Part shown: one piece after another, positions 1-9,169 of the stretch | How positions within the stretch are numbered: the stretch's first letter is position 1 | Layout: each line of letters starts with the position of its first letter | From: Verrucomicrobiia bacterium | GTDB lineage: Bacteria > Zixibacteria > MSB-5A5 > DSPP01 | Assembly (NCBI GenBank): GCA_035574275.1 | Contig: DATLYY010000031.1 | Span: forward strand, 1-35,311 | Reading direction: 5' to 3' | DNA length: 35,311 nucleotides | The notes under the pieces: generated by a model | Told to the model about the DNA's origin: nothing | Seen by the model: the letters and a program-made list of their open reading frames with translations, nothing else | Database searches by the model: none | Made by a program: the position numbers and the translations under genes

Positions 1-139
1 GAACGGCTGGATCGAAACGTACAACGAAACCTACCTGCACTCGGCCCTGGGCTACCAGCCGCCGAACAGGTTCGAGAAAACCTATAACCTCAGCCCGATG
101 ACTCCATATCAGGCCGCTTGACTAAAGGGGAGCAGTACA
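1..139 (+). mobile_element. Right end of an IS3-family insertion sequence
   Basis: The element enters from outside the window and carries the 3' end of its transposase gene. The likely terminal inverted repeat is ggggagcagtaca at 127-139. It ends in CA, as IS3-family right ends usually do, and reads TGTACTGCTCCCC outward. The left end and the target duplication lie outside the window, so the boundary is an inference from the terminal CA and from the abrupt start of an unrelated leftward gene. Confidence 0.75.
2..121 (+). CDS. IS3-family transposase, C-terminal 39 residues (5' end outside window)
   Basis: The reading frame beginning at base 2 encodes the end of a DDE integrase-core transposase (OrfB/rve type). 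The visible motif is W-I-E-x-Y-N-x2-Y-x-H-S-A-L-G-Y-x-P-P-x2-F. This is the standard IS3-family ending, in which a YN pair, a conserved histidine and the ALGY-PP block close the catalytic core. The final catalytic Glu lies before the window. The stop TGA is at 119-121, and the putative terminal inverted repeat follows within 20 bases. The protein would catalyse excision and insertion of its own element. Whether the element is still active cannot be judged from this fragment. Confidence 0.85.
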   Translation, partial: NGWIETYNETYLHSALGYQPPNRFEKTYNLSPMTPYQAA

Positions 140-637
140 GTTTTCCTGAATAGTATGCAAGTTGGCAACGGAGGCTGACAAATCGGAGTTTGCCTTACCG
201 TTAATTAGGATTGTTCGTAAGCCAAACCCGAGCCTTGCTGTATCTGGCAGGCTGTCGATGCTGTTAGGAGCTATCGAGGTAGCTAATGAAAGTGAGCCTG
301 TTTGCAGTACTGTGCCTATTAATCCCGCTTTATAATAATCATCGAATGTTAGATTCGGATGAGAGTAAAGCCAATATGGCGCTATCTCTAACGCGTAGTT
401 CTTGGGTAGAAAATCGCTTTGATTGACCGCGGATAATAGACTTGCCGCAAAGGCTTTTGGGGTATTGGGTCTCTCGATCGATGATGGCTCGACACCGAGT
501 AGGACAAAGGCCGGGGAGGGCGGCGTACGAAGATCATTAAGAGATACTTTTTGAGCTAGTCCGATCTTACTTAGAAATAGTATCAGAATAATAGCTTGAA
601 CGAGTAATCCTGCCTTCTTCGGATTTCTAATCAGCAT
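122..637 (-). CDS. Secreted protein of unknown function, truncated at its 3' end by the IS element
   Basis: The 171-residue frame starts with a signal peptide (K-K near residue 7, hydrophobic stretch about 10-28, cleavage near GLAQ). The remainder has alternating hydrophobic residues and stretches such as SLSLATS and LGFGLRT, suggestive of outer-membrane beta strands, but I do not recognise a family. The last five codons (C-T-A-P-L and a TAG) are the inverted repeat of the adjacent IS read backward. The native protein therefore diverges after about residue 166, and the true C-terminus is lost or lies beyond the IS. The start ATG is 11 bp downstream of the previous gene's stop in the same leftward operon, with no obvious ribosome site, so translation may be coupled. 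It is probably a broken gene. Confidence 0.6.
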   Translation of the reverse strand: MLIRNPKKAGLLVQAIILILFLSKIGLAQKVSLNDLRTPPSPAFVLLGVEPSSIERPNTPKAFAASLLSAVNQSDFLPKNYALEIAPYWLYSHPNLTFDDYYKAGLIGTVLQTGSLSLATSIAPNSIDSLPDTARLGFGLRTILINGKANSDLSASVANLHTIQENCTAPL

Positions 638-648
638 GGCATCGATAT

Positions 649-993
649 TTAGGCAATTAGTTTAAAGTTTGCACGATATATCACAGAGCCGCCTTCTTCG
701 TTAACCGTTGCATTTAGGTCATATCGTTTATCAACTTTTCCGCCTTTAAAGACGTATCCAACGCTGGTAAGATTCGTTTTGTCATTAACATCGGTTACGA
801 CCGTTTTTATAAAGAGCGTCTTGCCGGCGATATCAGACCCCCTCCCAATTGAGAGATTGTTGATTTGACCTATTCCGAGCTCGACATCGTTCAGCTTAAC
901 GAGTGAGCTTCCCAGTTGAGCCTCCCCAATTATTACGCTCAATGTTACTTTTCCGCTCGCTACTTCGTAAATGGTATCCAACTTAATAACCAA
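649..993 (-). CDS. Small protein of unknown function (114 aa)
   Basis: The start is TTG at 993-991, preceded by a very strong Shine-Dalgarno AAGGAGGTG (999-1007, minus strand) at 5-nt spacing, which decides this unusual start. There is no signal peptide or membrane segment. The sequence is rich in alternating V/I/L and T/S/D/N residues, as expected of an all-beta fold. An example is the segment with T-L-F-I-K-T-V-V-T-D-V-N-D, which resembles a beta-sandwich strand and turn. It is the fourth gene of the leftward operon, 126 bp behind the peptidase-hydrolase fusion and 11 bp before the IS-truncated gene. I do not recognise the family. A role as a cytoplasmic partner or substrate of the fusion enzyme is only a guess from position. 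Confidence 0.6.
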   Translation of the reverse strand: MVIKLDTIYEVASGKVTLSVIIGEAQLGSSLVKLNDVELGIGQINNLSIGRGSDIAGKTLFIKTVVTDVNDKTNLTSVGYVFKGGKVDKRYDLNATVNEEGGSVIYRANFKLIA

Positions 994-1119: not shown

Positions 1120-3054
1120 TTAGAAGCCACCTTCGGCAATCCCGTTCAGGATTTGCTCAACCTCGTATCTCGGTTCGTCGAATTCACCATGCCGAGTGGA
1201 AAAAGTGGCTGCAACTGGTTCTGCAAAATCAACGTGTTTTTCGAAATCTGTCCTGAGACCAAGTAATGGGACTCGTTTATTAGGACTTTCGAGATGATCG
1301 GCCACATAGGTGAGCAAGGAACTGGGATATATCTTAATGCTATCTCGCTCCTCGTTCTTTGGATTGAGCATATAGATACGGAAATCTTTTTTAGAAACAG
1401 CCCATCGTCGGTCAAGATAGAATGCCTCTTGCGTTCGCCTGATCGATAAGGCAGGGGCCATAAATTGTACAGAGGCGAGCTTGACGTTTGGGCTTTGCTT
1501 AAGGAGACCGGAGAGGACGTTTTGATAAAGCCAACCCAAATAAATACTGCCAGCACTATGGCCGATAAGATGAAGTTTAAACTTTGCGGACGGAGTCTCC
1601 TTCATCACGCCCAAGAGATTCTGTACAAAAAGATTCGCCCCACCGTTTTTAGAAGCGGAGCCTTCGGCGCGTCCTTTCATTTCATCCCAAAAGACCTCCC
1701 TGGCAATAGGAGCCAGTTTTTTCCCGAAGTATTTCTGACTGTCCCGAATGATAGTACCCGTCCCCTTTTTGATGTTTTCCCACACGTCGTGAAAGCTGAA
1801 CTTGGTTGGACCGGATGCGTCATCATCACTCCGCAGCCACCCTAACACTGACTCAGATATTCCCGTTTCCCATATGAAAAAGTAAGAGACAATACTTCTC
1901 TCGTTGCAAAACCCCCACAGGCGATTGGCCGTCTGAAGCGATGTAGCCTCCGAATTCAGTCCGCCGTGGGCGTACAACACAATGTGTCGGTAACCATCGG
2001 CGAGTTCCTTGGATCCCATCACCTTTCGAGCCATATCCGGGAGTTCTTCCTCTCGCGTTATCAGCCTCCCGCCAGTTGAAAGCTCCCCTCGGTCGCCCGT
2101 ATTGATTAAGTAAGGAAGAAGCAGGGGGTTTATGCCCAACCCTGTAACCACTGTCCCGGCCTTGCTTTCTTCGGCTCTGCCCACAAAACCAACTGTAAAA
2201 ATTCTCGGTTCACCTTTGGAATCAAGCGTTTGGGGGCCCAATCGGGCAACCCAGGCATCCTGTCGGTTCTCGAACCAGTCATCGTAACTGAGGAGCGCGC
2301 GTCCGTTGGCCCCCCAGCTTGGCCCCCATGAATTTTGGATTATAAACCCCTCTGGAGTGTATCCAACGATGGCAAAGGCATGCAGACCTTGTTTCCCGCT
2401 TTGGCGACGGATCTGCTTGAACGTACCCTTTGCGTCCAACAGATTCTCGTTCTGCCATCCCGAGTGAACCCAGGCGGAAGCCAGCACCGCGTCCGCCTCG
2501 GTTATGGCCGCTTGAACATGGCTCACGTCGCTGTCGAGAATCCGGTAGTAAGCGCCGATGGGCCGCCGGGCGGCATCCCTGGCTCGTTCAGGGGTGAACT
2601 CCTGGTCAATTACCGACTTTCTGCCGCGTTTGACCCTATACGGCCACAAATCTTCCGTGGCGACTCCGTGTTTGTGCCACCCCTTCATTGCTCCGCGCAG
2701 GCTTGTCCCTTCGTAGTTTTCACCCTGCCATTCGTCATATCGTCTCCCCATCTCGTAGAGCATTCTTGCGCTCACTTGTTCGGGTTTGGAGCCGTGTTCG
2801 TTCTTGGGCAAGCTGAGGAAGCGGCGGTGTAGAGAGACGTTTATTACTGTCCCGAGTGCGAAGCCGACACATGCCCCTTCATTTCCTTGGTCAAGGATTG
2901 GGACCTGTTCTGGGGGAATAAGAGAAGGGGCAAGTAGGGCAAGGAAGGGCTCGTAAACGTAGATATAATCCCGTGTATCTGTATCATCAGCTCGAACATC
3001 AAGAGTCCGGAGGGACGCTGGAAGCGTTCTGCTTGATAATATGAAGCTTGGCAT
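1120..3054 (-). CDS. Papain-like (C1) cysteine peptidase fused to an alpha/beta hydrolase
   Basis: This 644-residue protein has two catalytic domains and no signal peptide. Residues about 40-290 look like a C1/papain-fold peptidase. They contain the oxyanion Gln and nucleophile Cys in LDQGNEGACVGFA (Q56, C62), the catalytic His in GLHAFAIVGY (H225) and the Asn in IIQNSWGPSWGANG (N241). Residues about 355-640 look like a lipase-type alpha/beta hydrolase, with YAHGGLNS (361-368, oxyanion region) and the nucleophile elbow GHSAG (498-502, Ser500). His622 is a candidate triad histidine. The start has a good AGAGG-type ribosome site and lies 18 bp after the secreted protein gene. All visible catalytic residues are present, so both domains may be active. 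Substrates are unknown. The lack of a secretion signal points to cytoplasmic action or export by another route. Confidence 0.85.
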   Translation of the reverse strand: MPSFILSSRTLPASLRTLDVRADDTDTRDYIYVYEPFLALLAPSLIPPEQVPILDQGNEGACVGFALGTVINVSLHRRFLSLPKNEHGSKPEQVSARMLYEMGRRYDEWQGENYEGTSLRGAMKGWHKHGVATEDLWPYRVKRGRKSVIDQEFTPERARDAARRPIGAYYRILDSDVSHVQAAITEADAVLASAWVHSGWQNENLLDAKGTFKQIRRQSGKQGLHAFAIVGYTPEGFIIQNSWGPSWGANGRALLSYDDWFENRQDAWVARLGPQTLDSKGEPRIFTVGFVGRAEESKAGTVVTGLGINPLLLPYLINTGDRGELSTGGRLITREEELPDMARKVMGSKELADGYRHIVLYAHGGLNSEATSLQTANRLWGFCNERSIVSYFFIWETGISESVLGWLRSDDDASGPTKFSFHDVWENIKKGTGTIIRDSQKYFGKKLAPIAREVFWDEMKGRAEGSASKNGGANLFVQNLLGVMKETPSAKFKLHLIGHSAGSIYLGWLYQNVLSGLLKQSPNVKLASVQFMAPALSIRRTQEAFYLDRRWAVSKKDFRIYMLNPKNEERDSIKIYPSSLLTYVADHLESPNKRVPLLGLRTDFEKHVDFAEPVAATFSTRHGEFDEPRYEVEQILNGIAEGGF

Positions 3055-3072
3055 TTTCCTCTTTTGTGATAA

Positions 3073-4023
3073 TTAATACACCGCTACGATGATCATCTCA
3101 TAAGGCAAATCCCAATCCAGGGCCTCCGGACGGGTCTGACGGTTGTCGATTCTCCAGTCAATAAGTTTCAAGCTGATTCTGGGTATTCCAAGCACGTGGA
3201 GCCGGTCACCCGGCTTTAGGTCTTTAACTTTTAACTCGGGAGGAGAGTCTTTGATGAAAACCATCCTCCGATTGTACACCAGCATTTCTTCATCTAGATC
3301 CAAAACGGAAGCCATAACAAATCTCCCGTCGTCTACAACCTTTTGCTCTCCCGTAATTTCCATAATGAACTCGACGTAATTGTAGCCGGCCATAGAGGTC
3401 GTAATGGTCGTGGTTTTCTTTGAAGCATTGACCGAAAGATGGCATTTTATACTTTCGTACTTCGAAAAAGCGTCCTCGGCATTCTTGGTTTTGAACCCTT
3501 TGATTTTTTTGAGACTGCCCAGCAAGGAAGTGCCTTCGAGAGAGGTCACCGGATGGATTTCGAAAACATGGTCGGGGTTGGTAGTCGCGAACGGTTCCAG
3601 TGATGCTCCCTGAATCTGATGAGAGCTTCCGGCATGTTCGCACCAAATTCTCCATGCGCCGGAAGTCTTGGCAGGAGTACCCGTTCCTTCGAGGTTGTGA
3701 ACGAGATCGACGGACGGTTTCTCAAACTTTGCGTTCATGATCTCGGCAACCACCGGGAGCTCAATTTCTGGCGCTCTACCGGCGACATGCATATCCCCGT
3801 CCTTACTTGGCGAATTCGGCTTTGCATGGGCCTTGTCGACAGTGAATGTAGCTTCAATCGTGGCCCGGTCTTTGTACTCGTCGATAAACTTATTTTTCAA
3901 GGTGATTTCTATCTGAGCAGACGATACGGACGGAAGAAAGAATATCGTGACCAGAATCGACAACAAGATCGAAGCCAGCCACTTTCTGTTTCTAACGGTT
4001 TTTATCGCTTCGCCGAATTTCAT
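3073..4023 (-). CDS. Exported protein of unknown function (316 aa)
   Basis: The N-terminus is a classical signal peptide or anchor: basic K-x3-R-N-R-K, then a hydrophobic stretch at about 15-35 ending in VSSA-Q. The rest is soluble and mixed beta/alpha, and I recognise no family. Near the C-terminus the run LKPGDRLHVLG resembles a small beta-barrel turn. Two cysteines (in WCEH and KCHLS) could form a disulfide after export. The start ATG has an AGGAGG ribosome site 7 nt upstream. It is the second gene of the leftward operon, between a membrane TPR protein and the peptidase-hydrolase fusion. The context suggests an envelope component of one system, but no biochemical role can be assigned. Confidence 0.65.
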   Translation of the reverse strand: MKFGEAIKTVRNRKWLASILLSILVTIFFLPSVSSAQIEITLKNKFIDEYKDRATIEATFTVDKAHAKPNSPSKDGDMHVAGRAPEIELPVVAEIMNAKFEKPSVDLVHNLEGTGTPAKTSGAWRIWCEHAGSSHQIQGASLEPFATTNPDHVFEIHPVTSLEGTSLLGSLKKIKGFKTKNAEDAFSKYESIKCHLSVNASKKTTTITTSMAGYNYVEFIMEITGEQKVVDDGRFVMASVLDLDEEMLVYNRRMVFIKDSPPELKVKDLKPGDRLHVLGIPRISLKLIDWRIDNRQTRPEALDWDLPYEMIIVAVY

Positions 4024-4069
4024 CGAAAGTCCTCCTCGTGAGTGGTTAGCTATAATTCATGAGATAGCG

Positions 4070-4534
4070 TTATCTAGATAATAGATTTCTTTTCAACATA
4101 ACTGCTTGCCGGAGATTAGGCTGAATTTTGAGAACTGAGTCAGCCAACCGTACCGCGTTTGTCGTGTCCCCAATTGCGGCATTCGCCTTGGCAAATTTCA
4201 ATAAGACATCTGGATTCGCGGTTGGACGTTGCTCCAATTGCCTTAGATTAGTCTTAAGGGTATTGCGGGTCACCGAATCGCGGGGGTTGGCCTCAGCCTC
4301 TCCGGTCTGTTTTTCAACTTCCAGGACACCATCGCTATAACTGATTTTCTGGATGCTTGGATACCCGATCATTGCTATGGGCAGAAGGAAAAATGCAAGG
4401 AGGCTCTTGAGGGACCGTTTATGGATCGCGTAGTACACCAGAATGAAAAGCAGTACCGCAAACAGCACAGCCCCTAAAACCAGCAGAACCTTTTCGTGGA
4501 AAAGTAAACCGTCAAACGACGACAAAATCCCCAC
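4070..4534 (-). CDS. Small inner-membrane protein with C-terminal TPR-like helices
   Basis: This 154-residue protein starts at GTG (4534-4532), with only a weak ribosome site. Two hydrophobic segments lie at about residues 15-37 and 42-60. A short charged linker is followed by a helical region (about 95-154) with TPR-like spacing: N-P-D-V-L-L-K-F-A-K-A-N, then A-V-R-L-A-D-S-V-L-K-I-Q-P-N. It is the first gene of the leftward five-gene operon, 46 bp before the secreted protein gene, and about 155 nt downstream of a strong predicted promoter at 4698-4726. It may serve as a membrane scaffold. I cannot link it to a named family. Confidence 0.6.
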   Translation of the reverse strand: MGILSSFDGLLFHEKVLLVLGAVLFAVLLFILVYYAIHKRSLKSLLAFFLLPIAMIGYPSIQKISYSDGVLEVEKQTGEAEANPRDSVTRNTLKTNLRQLEQRPTANPDVLLKFAKANAAIGDTTNAVRLADSVLKIQPNLRQAVMLKRNLLSR

Positions 4535-5046: not shown

Positions 5047-5226
5047 ATGAAAAGAATTTTCGCAATCGTCCTGCTGGCTGTCTTTTTCGTTAGCTTTGGG
5101 GCGGGGTATTTCCTCTCGGTTCCTAAAGCCTGGGCCTGCGGCCCGCCATGTAACTGCACGCCGCAAAACTGCAGTGGAGATTGCATAGCAACTGGGTGCA
5201 GCGGTACGTGCACGAGATGCCTGTAA
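5047..5226 (+). CDS. Secreted cysteine-rich small peptide (59 aa)
   Basis: The gene has a near-perfect ribosome site AGGAGGTGA (5032-5040), 6 nt before ATG. The precursor has a signal peptide (K-R, hydrophobic core about 4-22, Ala-Trp-Ala near residue 30). The tail of about 29 residues contains eight cysteines (31, 35, 37, 42, 46, 51, 55, 58) separated by 1-4 residues, plus Gly, Thr, Pro and Ser. Cleavage at AWA-C would leave a Cys-first mature peptide. Such density suggests a disulfide-knotted or metal-binding exported peptide. I do not recognise the family. A bacteriocin, a redox substrate and a metal-binding peptide all remain possible. The next gene encodes a membrane-anchored CxxC thioredoxin-fold protein, an apt partner for a disulfide-rich peptide. 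Confidence 0.75.
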   Translation: MKRIFAIVLLAVFFVSFGAGYFLSVPKAWACGPPCNCTPQNCSGDCIATGCSGTCTRCL

Positions 5227-5240
5227 TGATTGATTAAAAC

Positions 5241-5272: not shown

Positions 5273-5352
5273 GGAACCATTACCTCAAATCTCTTGGATC
5301 AATTCTGCCTGAAAAGACGAGTTGACCAACATCGTTGATGGGAGGAAAGAAC

Positions 5353-5910
5353 ATGTCGGAAAATCTTCGAATCTCCAAAAAGACCATCGCCTTCATGCTT
5401 GTCGGAGTTCTAATAGCAGCTTTTTTGGGTATTGTCGCCGGAAGCTATTTTTTTAAGGTCCGATCCGCCGAGGCGCTAAAATCAGATCCAGTTCTTCGGT
5501 TGAGGATTGGTCAATACTTTCCAGAATTTAGGTTTACAGGTCTAGTCAGTGGGCAGCCAGATTTGTACCAATCTCTGGCCGGTAGGAAGTCAGTGGTCAT
5601 CTTCTTAACCACAGATTGCGAGGATTGCGTTCAGGCCGTCAGTCGTTGGGATAGTATGTATCCCAGTATCAGTCACGAGTATCAGGTGTTCGGCGTTTCG
5701 TACGAAACTATAGATCGGATGAATGCTTACCGAGCCGGGAAGGGCATAAAATTCCCCTTGTATAACGACCCAAACGGGAAATTCACCGCGGAACACCATG
5801 TTGAGCATTTTCCGACGATTGTAGGGATAAATGAAAAAAGGGAAATCGTTTTTATTGGTTTTAGTACCCGTTCTGAGGAGTCGGTGGGAAATTATTTGAA
5901 ACTTCTGTAG
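5353..5910 (+). CDS. Membrane-anchored thioredoxin-fold (redoxin/TlpA-like) protein
   Basis: The start ATG at 5353 is chosen because GGAGGAAAG (5341-5349) sits just upstream; an in-frame TTG and ATG at 5335-5340 would consume it. The 185-residue protein has an N-terminal membrane anchor (about 12-34) and then an AhpC/TSA-Redoxin type thioredoxin domain (about 50-185). The active site is T-T-D-C-E-D-C (C89, C92), and the cis-Pro motif is HFPTIVG. The anchored domain should face the periplasm, where the family reduces or exchanges disulfides. It follows the Cys-rich peptide by 126 bp across a hairpin. The neighbour suggests it maintains or isomerises the peptide's disulfides, but that is an inference. 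A general TlpA/ResA-like role is the alternative. Confidence 0.85.
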   Translation: MSENLRISKKTIAFMLVGVLIAAFLGIVAGSYFFKVRSAEALKSDPVLRLRIGQYFPEFRFTGLVSGQPDLYQSLAGRKSVVIFLTTDCEDCVQAVSRWDSMYPSISHEYQVFGVSYETIDRMNAYRAGKGIKFPLYNDPNGKFTAEHHVEHFPTIVGINEKREIVFIGFSTRSEESVGNYLKLL

Positions 5911-5925: not shown

Positions 5926-6987
5926 CTAAGGCGAACTTGAAAAGATAGCAACGAGCATAGTTTTGATATATTCCTTGCTCATATTGATTGTGCTCTCATC
6001 AGTATCCGTATAAACTATGTTCATATATAAAATGATATCGACGAGACTATAAATACCGTCCTTGTTAATATCGAATCCCGCTGTTGGTCTCACAAAGCAG
6101 TTCGTGACAATAGAAAACGAAGCGTCTGACGCGTCGGAACTGACATTGCCCGCTGCATCGGAGACGATGACTTTAATTTTTGCGTTGCTGCTGTTCGCCG
6201 AACCTCCTGGAGTCCAATCATAGGAACCCGGATTCCCCGTAAGGTTGGCTAGCTGTAGCTCATAAGATACCCCACCATTTGTTCTGTCCAACCATACTTC
6301 CACTGTGGTTATTCCAACGTTATCTGAAGCATCCCAAGTTATTGTATAGGGGCAAGGTCTTGGCACCGACTCGCCCCCATTTGGGTCTGTAACTGTAACT
6401 AATGGAGAAATCGGGTCAACCGTTATCACTCCTTTCACAAAATTGACGGGGACGTCTCGGTCATTATTATTAACGAAACCCGTTTTGCCGAGAGCTATTT
6501 TCCCGGTATCCAGAACAATTCTTCCCGAATCTGTGTTAACCGTATCAAACTCAAATTCAAAAAACGCCTTGCGGGTAAGATTGGGGGGTTCAAGTGAAGC
6601 TGGATTGTCGGTTTCGAAAAAAGCGGCGATCGTGAAAGAATCGGGTGATACGCTATTGTATTTATTGGTGGCAAAAATAGACATTCCCTGCAAAGTCGAG
6701 GTTAGCCGTCGAACCGCGCCGCCGACGGTATCCTTACGGGGATACCCCAACGTCATATAAGCGTTGCCCGTCAGGGTCTTTTCAACGAGGGCAACTACAA
6801 CACCTGTCAGTGAGTCCTTATTTGTAATGTAAACGCGCACAACAACTGCAGGATTTCCAATCCCAGGTTTGACCGACCTGGACTCAATAATAACCGAGTC
6901 GCGAGGGTCGGGCGTTGAAAAGCTGGTGGAATATCCTAAGACGACGAGAGCGATTCCCTTACGGAATATTCTGTAAAAGTTTTTCAT
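5926..6987 (-). CDS. Secreted protein with Ig-like domain and C-terminal dockerin-like motif
   Basis: The start ATG at 6987 gives a signal peptide beginning M-K-N-F-Y-R-I-F-R-K and has GGAG 6 nt upstream. A longer upstream frame would overlap the preceding gene. The middle (about 70-200) resembles a cohesin-like or beta-sandwich region. Residues about 205-305 form an Ig-like domain with the common PNGGE...ITWDASDNVGI pattern and D-A-A-G-N. The end contains one dockerin/EF-hand loop, D-I-N-K-D-G-I-Y-S-L-V-D. Only one repeat is seen, whereas dockerins normally carry two, so it may be degenerate. It is the last gene of the leftward secreted cluster, 22 bp after the propeller protein, and converges with the thioredoxin-like gene. 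It is probably a surface or extracellular structural protein. Confidence 0.75.
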   Translation of the reverse strand: MKNFYRIFRKGIALVVLGYSTSFSTPDPRDSVIIESRSVKPGIGNPAVVVRVYITNKDSLTGVVVALVEKTLTGNAYMTLGYPRKDTVGGAVRRLTSTLQGMSIFATNKYNSVSPDSFTIAAFFETDNPASLEPPNLTRKAFFEFEFDTVNTDSGRIVLDTGKIALGKTGFVNNNDRDVPVNFVKGVITVDPISPLVTVTDPNGGESVPRPCPYTITWDASDNVGITTVEVWLDRTNGGVSYELQLANLTGNPGSYDWTPGGSANSSNAKIKVIVSDAAGNVSSDASDASFSIVTNCFVRPTAGFDINKDGIYSLVDIILYMNIVYTDTDESTINMSKEYIKTMLVAIFSSSP

Positions 6988-7009
6988 TATCCACTCCATC
7001 TCATCCGGT

Positions 7010-9115
7010 TTAGCAAGGTGGAAATGCGCCTTGAAAGACCATTTGCAGAAACAATACAGCATCGGCTGGACTGGCCCAGTTGTCGCAATTAATGTCTGCC
7101 ATTAAGTGATAATCGCCGTAGGGTGGAGGCGCGATATCCGAGAAAATAATTTTAAGCAAAAGTACAACGTCAGCTGGCGTATGAATACCATTGGCATCCA
7201 CGTCCCCTCGCAGACAGGTGGGCTTGCCGGGTCCCATAGAGCTTTTAACGAAATTCTCCGCCGGGTCGGTAATCCTTAGAAATAGACACTCGTCGCAATC
7301 CGTTGTTGGCATCCCGGGATTTCCTGCCCGCCCAACGTTGTTGGGAACCCCATAAAAAACGGAATCGGCCAAAGTGGAATAGCTGCCATATCCTGCGTGG
7401 CGGGAGTCAGCCCCCACAGACCCGCCGGAAGGAATAATTGTCCAGGTGTAGGTCAAAGGGTCATTGTCCGGGTCGGTTGCAGTAACCTTTACAAAATCAC
7501 CTCCCCAGTTGAGAGGTCCGAGCCCAATGCCGGAGTCGGAAGGGAAAAAGCAGGTCCATTCCGGATGTACGAACCTTGGAAATTGGGTAATGGTGGGACT
7601 ATGGTTGCGTAAGGTCGTATCAACGAACACCGTGAAAGAATCTATATCTACGGCATCTCCATAGAGCGAAGTTGAGGTTATCTTGACTTTATAGGTCCCG
7701 CTGTCGTTCGCCCCCACCACCCACAGCCCTCCGTAACTCGACTTGGGCGGTATTTCCACGTTGTTCGACACGGTTTGAACCAAAGTGTTTTGCGGCATTT
7801 TAAACACTTGTTCCGTAATCCGTACATAGTCGGTAAAATGATGCCACCAATTTACGGCATTGCCGGTACCCGAATCTCCTCTGGCTATGTATTTGAAACT
7901 ATCAACGTATGCCTCCACCCCAATCGAAAACCGCCGTATCCCCGTCGTCGGCCCCCAAGTTTCCGTCACGAAAATATCATGCAAATTCGCCAACGGATAC
8001 TGGTTGTTCGGGCAGCCCGGATTCCCGCCGCAGTGATCAACCCAGGCCCCGTGCTCGGCCTCGATGGCGTTGGGATAGTTCAATAGCGAATCCACTGTTC
8101 CAATCCCGCCCCAGCTTCCGACCAAAACCAGCGTATCCGAGCTGTTCATATAGGCCGGCCAAAATTTATAAACCATCCCGTTGTTAGAATCCAAAATCCA
8201 AAGCATCCCGTGATTATCCACCGTCGCTGAGGACAAAAAATAATTGGCCAATGCTTGCCCGGTAAAAACCAGCCAGTCAAAATCAAGCCGCACCGCTTTT
8301 TCCACAACAAGCTCGTTTGTGTAAAGCGCCGTATTGTTCATCTGCAGCCAATAAATATCCCCGTTCCCCTGGCTGACCACGTATAGATGGTTTTTCAGCA
8401 TACCGGTGGTTTTATCCCAAGCATAGGCAACGGCCGTCGGCTTATTAAATTGAAAACGGGTTTCCGTGGGACCCGGAAAAACTCGCCCTCCCGGAAAGAT
8501 TACTATCCGGTTATTTCCATAATCCGCCACCGCGTACATTTGCGCTACCAAGTTGGGATTAACGGAACCCTGAACTTTATACTCCACTTCATCAATCCCC
8601 CTCGGTTCTTTCAAAGGCGTGCCTTCGCCCAGCGAGTCAAAGCGCACAAATTGCACGTTCAACACATCGCATGCATCCACGGTGTAAACATGAGTTCGGT
8701 TGTTGTAAGCGTCCGATACATAAACCCCGCCCGTCCACCCGAATGCAATCCCTCGCGGACTGGCAAACTGAAAAGAATTGGTGCCATGTTCCCCCTGCCA
8801 AGCCATATCTTCCCCACCGCCATCTTTTTTATAGACCCAGCACCGGTCCCAATTGGCGTCGGCCACACCAATTAACTCTATATTTCCTTGCGTGCAGGTG
8901 GGGTCGTCGTTGTAAACGAACGCTGAAACCCCGTACGGGCGAGAAAATATCTGCGTATTGAAGCGTGCCTGGCTGGTCTGCGAGTTCATTCGAGAATACG
9001 CAGGAACCAAGTTTTTTGGTAATAAAAGCTTGGAACTGAAAGAGGGTAGGGTTTGGGCAAAAAGTAAGCTATCCCATAATAAGAAAGCAAAAAAATATAG
9101 AACAATCTTGTTCAT
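7010..9115 (-). CDS. Secreted beta-propeller (NHL-like) protein with C-terminal dockerin repeats
   Basis: The start ATG at 9115 is preferred over an upstream in-frame start because AGAGGTG lies just before it and the protein then begins with a signal peptide ending near LLFAQ. Of 701 residues, about 70-400 contain NHL/six-bladed-propeller-like repeats (FQFASPRGIAFGWTGGVYVSD; NNRIVIFPGG; FNKPTAVAYAW). A mixed beta region follows, with the Ig-like run TATDPDNDPLTYTW. The C-terminus has two dockerin-type loops, D-V-D-A-N-G-I-H-T-P-A-D and D-I-N-C-D-N-W-A-S-P-A-D. The second has Cys and Asn at usual Asp/Gly positions. The protein is probably extracellular. The dockerin may bind calcium and a cohesin-like partner, though such modules in non-cellulosomal bacteria often have unknown partners. 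Confidence 0.85.
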   Translation of the reverse strand: MNKIVLYFFAFLLWDSLLFAQTLPSFSSKLLLPKNLVPAYSRMNSQTSQARFNTQIFSRPYGVSAFVYNDDPTCTQGNIELIGVADANWDRCWVYKKDGGGEDMAWQGEHGTNSFQFASPRGIAFGWTGGVYVSDAYNNRTHVYTVDACDVLNVQFVRFDSLGEGTPLKEPRGIDEVEYKVQGSVNPNLVAQMYAVADYGNNRIVIFPGGRVFPGPTETRFQFNKPTAVAYAWDKTTGMLKNHLYVVSQGNGDIYWLQMNNTALYTNELVVEKAVRLDFDWLVFTGQALANYFLSSATVDNHGMLWILDSNNGMVYKFWPAYMNSSDTLVLVGSWGGIGTVDSLLNYPNAIEAEHGAWVDHCGGNPGCPNNQYPLANLHDIFVTETWGPTTGIRRFSIGVEAYVDSFKYIARGDSGTGNAVNWWHHFTDYVRITEQVFKMPQNTLVQTVSNNVEIPPKSSYGGLWVVGANDSGTYKVKITSTSLYGDAVDIDSFTVFVDTTLRNHSPTITQFPRFVHPEWTCFFPSDSGIGLGPLNWGGDFVKVTATDPDNDPLTYTWTIIPSGGSVGADSRHAGYGSYSTLADSVFYGVPNNVGRAGNPGMPTTDCDECLFLRITDPAENFVKSSMGPGKPTCLRGDVDANGIHTPADVVLLLKIIFSDIAPPPYGDYHLMADINCDNWASPADAVLFLQMVFQGAFPPC

Positions 9116-9169
9116 AATTTCACCTCTAATACTCCAATCAACAACTTTTCGCTTTTCCAAATTCTATTT

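What the first reader, a model, noticed from the sequence alone, without database searches (positions are those of the whole stretch)
1120..4534. Operon built around a papain-like peptidase fused to an alpha/beta hydrolase
A single 644-residue protein carries a complete C1 peptidase site (Q56, C62, H225, N241) and a separate lipase-type GHSAG nucleophile (Ser500). It is co-directed with a membrane TPR protein, an exported protein, a strong-SD 114-aa protein and a truncated secreted protein, all under one good promoter. I know of no described system with this gene set. Possible roles are an effector, a peptide- or lipid-processing system, or an envelope-defence module.
Basis: partly seen in the sequence, partly recalled or inferred. 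Interest (0 to 1): 0.72.

Follow-up and report, generated by a model that had tools for sequence, protein, structure and literature searches.

The report
Papain protease fused to lipase-like hydrolase
A bacterial gene encodes one protein that joins a protein-cutting enzyme to a fat-splitting-type enzyme; the same fusion recurs in distant bacteria, often beside other self-destruct-type enzymes, which suggests a controlled cell-damaging effector, although its neighbours in this genome are not a conserved set.

Summary
The 644-aa protein is real: an N-terminal xylellain-type papain (C1) domain and a C-terminal alpha/beta hydrolase (ABH) of a distinct family. The fusion recurs in Pseudomonadota, Bacteroidota and two other genomes of the window's class. 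The papain site (Gln56, Cys62, His225, Asn241) is intact in all 23 relatives aligned. The hydrolase site (Ser500, Asp571, His622) is intact in most but dead in seven. Three of those seven sit beside a GDSL-lipase/caspase fusion whose own motifs are intact. The same ABH family also occurs fused to, or next to, caspases, once behind two integrases. Rhizobial loci add trypsin-NucA, peptidoglycan hydrolases and a cyclooxygenase-like enzyme with a P450. The 114-aa and 171-aa genes are an independent pair (the latter cut by a transposase gene), the TPR gene occurs elsewhere with other enzymes, and the exported protein was found nowhere else in the phylum. Best explanation: a cytosolic, protease-controlled acyl hydrolase acting as an effector in peptidase-coupled conflict or cell-death systems, a papain counterpart of the known caspase-ABH pairing. 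Catalysis, autoprocessing, substrate and trigger are all untested.

The parts
1120..3054 (-). 644-aa C1-ABH fusion protein (ATG; SD-like GAGG upstream; no signal peptide apparent)
   Evidence: ORF; Pfam PF00112; full-length homologues
2230..2997 (-). papain-like (xylellain-type) peptidase domain, about residues 20-275
   Evidence: Pfam; phmmer to 3ois E 8.4e-13; Foldseek of AF2 model to 3ois E 1e-14
2869..2871 (-). codon of catalytic Cys62 (Gln56 2887-2889, His225 2380-2382, Asn241 2332-2334)
   Evidence: invariant in 23 of 23 aligned relatives
1123..2157 (-). alpha/beta hydrolase domain, about residues 300-644; family motifs HGGL, W-x2-MK, GHSAG, APA, E-x2-D, SLL, HG-x-FD
   Evidence: A1, A2; AF2 strand-turn-helix at Ser500; homologue L004 passes DUF900 cut-off
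1555..1557 (-). codon of Ser500 nucleophile (probable Asp571 1342-1344, His622 1189-1191)
   Evidence: invariant in A1 and A2; lost in 7 relatives
3073..4023 (-). 316-aa exported protein (signal peptide MKFGEAIKTVRNRKWLASILLSILVTIFFLPSVSSAQ), unknown function, 18 nt upstream of C1-ABH
   Evidence: no Pfam family above cut-off; only copy in 133 genomes of the phylum
4070..4525 (-). membrane-anchored TPR protein (probable TTG start at 4525); homologues elsewhere beside a calcineurin-like phosphoesterase, an AAA ATPase and a C70/C39 papain-like protease
649..993 (-). 114-aa protein (TTG, strong SD AAGGAGGTG); first gene of an independent two-gene module
122..637 (-). 171-aa truncated exported protein; full-length homologues 409-467 aa, C-terminal part missing
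1..121 (+). C-terminal end of a DDE transposase gene abutting the truncated gene
   Evidence: sequence

Best explanation
The protein is a cytosolic two-enzyme effector. An N-terminal xylellain-type papain protease is fused by a variable linker of about 40 residues to a C-terminal serine acyl hydrolase. The hydrolase belongs to a family that bacteria also use fused to, or next to, caspases. Proposed mechanism: the protein is held latent; a trigger (stress or an invader, in this window perhaps relayed by the membrane TPR protein) activates the papain domain; it cleaves its own linker or a partner and frees the lipase or esterase, which damages membrane lipids or releases lipid products, leading to growth arrest or cell death. 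Shown: the fusion, its recurrence, conservation of both active sites, absence of signal peptides, homology of the ABH to caspase-linked ABHs, and co-location with other protease/effector genes. Inferred: latency, proteolytic activation, lipid as substrate, the trigger, and a defensive outcome.
For: (a) Full-length homologues in a Gammaproteobacteria MAG, a Flavobacteriales MAG, two genomes of the same class and 11 plasmid records covering at least 80% of the query. C1 and ABH distances correlate across 15 fusions (rho 0.55, 0 of 5000 permutations). (b) C1 site intact in 23/23; ABH Ser/His intact in 15/15 fusions of the main type, with Asp missing in one. (c) The ABH is the same family as caspase-linked ABHs (hhalign probability 99.9, E 1e-37). 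It is fused to a caspase plus Amidase_2 in Kovacikia L112, lies next to caspases in L113, L143, L144, L145 and L146, and in L146 lies just behind two integrases. (d) C1-ABH neighbours: GDSL-caspase fusions in L098/L101/L108/L109; trypsin-NucA in L143; peptidoglycan hydrolases in L105/L106/L108/L143; S8 subtilase in L103; Tle1-like DUF2235 plus a subtilase-like gene in L002; an FRG-domain gene and, by sequence inspection, a type I CRISPR-Cas locus in L003. (e) Precedent: caspase-ABH pairing and NucA-trypsin systems (PMC7159879); protease-gated nucleases and canu (PMC12799240). (f) Where the ABH is dead in L101/L108/L109, the adjacent GDSL-caspase keeps its GDS motif, and the caspase Cys motif is kept in all three.
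Against: In the window and in its two same-class relatives there is no caspase, trypsin or known defence gene beside it. The island context comes mostly from Rhizobiaceae plasmids, a biased and related sample. The C1-ABH family has no PADLOC match. Seven relatives have a dead hydrolase, so hydrolysis is not always needed. No autoproteolysis site is conserved in the linker. The ABH model is weak (pLDDT 62, pTM 0.70, 3 sequences; best PDB match cutinase E 6e-4 with low TM). Co-location was not tested against a background rate.
Confidence: 0.42

Rival explanations
1. Lipid-mediator enzyme: the ABH releases fatty acids that neighbouring oxygenases convert to oxylipins, and the papain domain controls or matures it. 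Signalling or chemical defence rather than suicide.
For: In R. gallicum (L143) a C1-ABH gene is followed co-directionally by a P450 and a haem peroxidase whose best PDB relatives are prostaglandin G/H synthases (E 5e-53) and which has the YRWH motif; the R. etli locus L106 has the same pair next to C1-ABH. RoxA-like haem proteins lie near C1-ABH in L096 and L105.
Against: No such gene lies beside the window's gene or in L002, L003, L010, L011, L098-L102. The fatty-acid dioxygenase role is inferred from similarity only. The loci are all Rhizobiaceae.
Confidence: 0.14
2. The papain domain is the working part and the ABH is a regulatory or binding module; the hydrolase site is a relic or secondary.
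For: C1 site intact in 23/23, hydrolase site dead in 7/22; C1 is more conserved than ABH (mean identity 48% vs 35%); trypsin-C1-dead-ABH triple fusions L104/L110/L111.
Against: 15 fusions and 6 caspase-linked relatives keep the Ser-His pair, and dead copies cluster in the tree with one or two losses. In the window the triad is complete.
Confidence: 0.18
3. Antibacterial or anti-eukaryotic effector delivered by a secretion or contractile injection system.
For: Islands are rich in peptidoglycan hydrolases, Tle1-like, patatin, PLD and lysozyme genes typical of effectors; rhizobial hosts.
Against: No PAAR, VgrG, Rhs or other N-terminal delivery domain and no signal peptide in any fusion. Immunity genes were not recognised. 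Several hosts are environmental MAGs.
Confidence: 0.12
4. Housekeeping or metabolic enzyme that processes peptides and acyl esters, with no link to conflict.
For: In G044/G045, same class as the window, it stands among ordinary single genes; no defence-library match.
Against: Patchy distribution (3 of 133 genomes of the phylum), plasmid carriage, and recurrent caspase/protease/effector neighbours.
Confidence: 0.14

Closest known systems
Xylellain-type short C1A peptidases (PDB 3ois)
   Same: Same papain subfamily by sequence (E 8.4e-13) and model (Foldseek E 1e-14); N-terminal D-x2-D-x-RD-x2-Y segment
   Different: Xylellain is single-domain; here a second catalytic domain is fused. A recent papain-family survey set multidomain prokaryotic C1A proteins aside (PMC10380794)
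Caspase plus alpha/beta-hydrolase pairing of VMAP MoxR-vWA conflict systems (Kaur 2020, PMC7159879)
   Same: A protease paired with an ABH; the ABH family here is itself fused to or beside caspases in other loci. That it is the very ABH family of that paper was not tested
   Different: Protease is papain-type and in the same polypeptide; no MoxR, vWA or VMAP gene found next to it
NucA-trypsin 'System 3' (Kaur 2020)
   Same: Trypsin-NucA proteins share islands with C1-ABH in R. gallicum; predicted proteolytic release of an effector
   Different: Effector is a hydrolase, not a nuclease
Protease-gated nucleases HamM/Avs and canu (PMC12799240)
   Same: Proposed logic: protease activates a latent effector enzyme
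   Different: No nuclease; protease class differs; gating not shown here
DUF900 (PF05990) alpha/beta hydrolases
   Same: Homologue L004 matches above the Pfam cut-off
   Different: The window protein itself does not match; own family motifs HGGL, W-x2-MK, SLL

Membership tests
Peptidase family C1 (papain) | Gln-Cys-His-Asn catalytic residues in papain order | tested here: met
   Q56, C62, H225, N241; 23/23 relatives
Peptidase family C1 (papain) | papain fold and family profile | tested here: met
   PF00112 above cut-off; AF2 model best match 3ois, TMt 0.75
Peptidase family C1 (papain) | proteolytic activity | not testable with these tools
   needs enzyme assay
Alpha/beta hydrolase superfamily | nucleophile elbow G-x-S-x-G plus Asp and His | tested here: met
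   GHSAG Ser500, Asp571, His622 invariant in A1 and A2; Asp and His assignment inferred from conservation
Alpha/beta hydrolase superfamily | alpha/beta hydrolase fold | tested here: inconclusive
   strand-elbow-helix core predicted, pTM 0.70; best PDB match cutinase E 6e-4 with low TM
DUF900 Pfam family | profile match above gathering score | tested here: not met
   none for the window protein; met only by L004
VMAP/MoxR-vWA ternary conflict system | MoxR, vWA and VMAP genes adjacent | tested here: not met
   none among the eight leftmost proteins of the window searched in Pfam
Known anti-phage systems in PADLOC 2.0.0 | profile match of any component | tested here: not met
Protease-gated nuclease (HamM/canu) | MBL-fold nuclease gene beside the protease | tested here: not met
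   no nuclease domain in the five proteins
Secretion-system-delivered effector | delivery domain, signal peptide or cognate immunity gene | tested here: inconclusive
   no delivery domain in Pfam scans; N-termini read by eye; genome not searched for secretion systems

The most novel reading that the evidence does not exclude
C1-ABH proteins are protease-gated phospholipases of bacterial programmed cell death or immunity in which a papain takes the place of a caspase. In some loci the released fatty acids feed a bacterial cyclooxygenase-like enzyme and P450, giving an infection-triggered lipid-mediator pathway that parallels phospholipase - cyclooxygenase - P450 signalling in animals.
Probability: 0.1. 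Interest if true: 0.88.

Novelty: new variant of a known kind. Interest (0 to 1): 0.52.

Why it matters
Protease-activated effectors (trypsin or caspase with a nuclease) are a recent theme in bacterial immunity. A papain fused to a lipase-like enzyme, with the same lipase family also joined to caspases, would extend that theme to another protease class and to membrane lipids. It would give a single-gene system in which activation and effect can be separated by two point changes. The cyclooxygenase-like and P450 neighbours add a concrete test of whether bacteria couple such hydrolases to oxidised-lipid signals.

Tried and rejected
Five-gene operon as a conserved system: rejected. PADLOC and NCBIfam hits for the fusion: none. 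Similarity of the 114-aa protein to the 199-aa gene before the fusion in L003: none. Terminator or RNA element in the 126-nt gap: no (fold z 0.24; terminator-like sites at chance). Phages: no full-length fusion in annotated phages; viral contigs gave C1-only relatives and one ABH-caspase locus. A profile of distant ABHs could not be used for a contig scan, and a single-protein ABH scan found nothing. Similarity of the DUF900 protein in L105 to the window's ABH: none by BLAST. Surveys of other phyla with the genome search were not possible because 'of' accepts only genome handles, so the distribution is a lower bound.
Full report
Observation. The ORF at 1120-3054(-) encodes 644 residues. Residues 108-252 match Pfam Peptidase_C1 (E 2.5e-8, cut-off passed), and residues 23-269 match xylellain, PDB 3ois (E 8.4e-13). 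The hydrolase half has no Pfam match in the window protein, but its homologue L004 passes the DUF900 cut-off. In an alignment of five full-length proteins at 35-38% identity, Q56, C62, H225, N241, S500, D571 and H622 are all invariant.

Structure. AlphaFold2 on nine sequences gave pLDDT 64 and pTM 0.56; its papain half matches 3ois (Foldseek E 1e-14, TMt 0.75). The hydrolase half alone, with three sequences, gave pTM 0.70 and a strand-elbow-helix at Ser500; the best PDB match is cutinase at E 6e-4 with low TM scores. The papain fold is secure. The hydrolase fold rests mainly on family motifs and the catalytic elbow.

Distribution. Full-length fusions were found in a Gammaproteobacteria MAG and a Flavobacteriales MAG, in two other genomes of the window's class out of 133 searched in the phylum, and on plasmids of Rhizobium, Sinorhizobium, Microvirga, Ideonella, Eleftheria and Palleronia. 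In the window's phylum this ABH family was found only fused to C1 (3 of 3 genomes). Pairwise distances of the two halves correlate over 15 fusions (rho 0.55, 0 of 5000 permutations), consistent with inheritance as a unit. No fusion shows a signal peptide by inspection, so the protein is most likely cytosolic.

Active sites across the family. In 29 aligned proteins the papain residues are intact in all 23 that carry the domain. The hydrolase Ser and His are intact in 15 fusions (Asp missing in one, L143_7412) and in 6 caspase-linked ABHs. They are lost in seven: L101, L103, L108 and L109, where GHSAG became an x-D-G-A-G form, and L104, L110 and L111, which carry or are annotated with an N-terminal trypsin domain. 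The dead copies cluster on the C1 tree and need one or two losses. In L101, L108 and L109 the next gene, adjacent or overlapping, encodes a GDSL-lipase/caspase fusion that keeps its GDS motif and the caspase DSCHSG motif. This looks like a hand-over of the lipase role, but the three loci are one clade, so it is one observation.

The hydrolase family and caspases. A2 shows shared motifs (HGGL, W-x2-MK, GHSAG, APA, E-x2-D, SLL, HG-x-F) between C1-fused ABHs and ABHs fused to or next to caspases. Two non-overlapping alignments, C1-fused (A6) against caspase-adjacent (A5), give hhalign probability 99.9 and E 1e-37. Kovacikia L112 is Amidase_2 - ABH - caspase in one protein. In L113, L143, L144 and L146 the order is ABH - caspase - third protein; the third protein's N-terminal region is homologous in all four and in L143 and L113 carries trypsin plus NucA or PLD. 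L146 is an IMG/VR contig in which this trio lies just behind two tyrosine integrases.

Neighbourhoods of the fusion. R. gallicum L143: two C1-ABH copies with DUF2272, ABH - caspase - trypsin/NucA, P450 and a cyclooxygenase-like peroxidase. R. leguminosarum L098: caspase, YEATS-associated protein and trypsin-like protease. R. etli L106: Amidase_2, peroxidase and P450. S. fredii L105: CHAP/peptidoglycan-binding protein and a RoxA-like haem protein. Palleronia L103: S8 subtilase and haem peroxidase. Gammaproteobacterium L002: DUF2235/Tle1-like gene and a subtilase-like gene. Flavobacteriales L003: FRG-domain gene upstream and, judged from the ORFs and the repeat array rather than by a profile, a type I CRISPR-Cas locus downstream. 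Ideonella, Eleftheria, G044 and G045 show ordinary neighbours. No background rate was computed for these co-locations.

The window's own neighbours. The exported 316-aa protein has no other homologue in the phylum. The TPR protein has homologues in four other genomes, next to a calcineurin-like phosphoesterase (L140), an AAA ATPase (L139) and a C70/C39 papain-like protease (L141); a membrane-anchored adaptor for varied enzymes fits, but this is inference. The 114-aa and 171-aa genes form an independent pair in L136, L137 and L138, with homologues of both also close together in L135; the partner is 409-467 aa long there, and in the window it is cut short beside a transposase gene.

Interpretation. 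Kaur et al. 2020 reported that caspase domains in VMAP systems are always accompanied by an ABH gene and proposed that the two operate together; they also described alphaproteobacterial NucA-trypsin systems (PMC7159879). Tuck et al. 2025 showed protease activation of latent nucleases and a caspase-nuclease defence system (PMC12799240). The C1-ABH fusion fits this logic with a papain and an acyl hydrolase. What is shown here is anatomy, conservation, homology and context. Gating, substrate, trigger and outcome are inferred. Confidence in the anatomy is about 0.95, and in the effector mechanism 0.42.

Novelty. I found no paper describing this fusion in the held library, and a papain-family survey left multidomain prokaryotic members unanalysed (PMC10380794). 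The principle of a protease paired with an effector hydrolase is known, so I rate it a new variant of a known kind.

Noticed in passing
window 5048-5227 (+): 59-aa exported Cys-rich peptide (mature part CGPPCNCTPQNCSGDCIATGCSGTCTRCL) just upstream of a membrane-anchored AhpC/TSA-fold protein (5335-5910); possibly a redox-linked or modified peptide.
   Followed up: no
L143:7412-12475 and L106:8779-14661: C1-ABH next to a P450 and a haem peroxidase that matches prostaglandin G/H synthase 2 at E 5e-53 (L143 copy) and has YRWH in both: a bacterial cyclooxygenase-like enzyme beside a lipase-like gene.
   Followed up: partly
L146:4424-12242: Two tyrosine integrases followed by ABH, caspase and a third protein in an IMG/VR contig: a candidate mobile three-gene effector module, also present in L143, L144 and L113.
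   Followed up: partly
L098, L101, L108, L109: GDSL-lipase fused to a caspase, both motifs intact where checked; in L101, L108 and L109 it follows the C1-ABH gene whose hydrolase site is dead.
   Followed up: partly
L104, L110, L111: Trypsin - papain - degenerate ABH proteins, each divergent from a gene for a protein of about 2,300-2,420 aa (no Pfam match for the L104 copy, the only one scanned).
   Followed up: no
L139, L140, L141: Homologues of the window's membrane TPR protein sit beside an AAA ATPase, a calcineurin-like phosphoesterase and a C70/C39 papain-like protease; L141 also has a DUF6519 protein nearby.
   Followed up: partly
L135-L138 and window 122-993: Conserved two-gene module: small protein of about 115 aa plus exported protein of about 410-470 aa, no Pfam family found, function unknown.
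   Followed up: partly
window 5926-9160 (-): Exported Big_7 and NHL-repeat proteins with dockerin-like C-terminal repeats.
   Followed up: no
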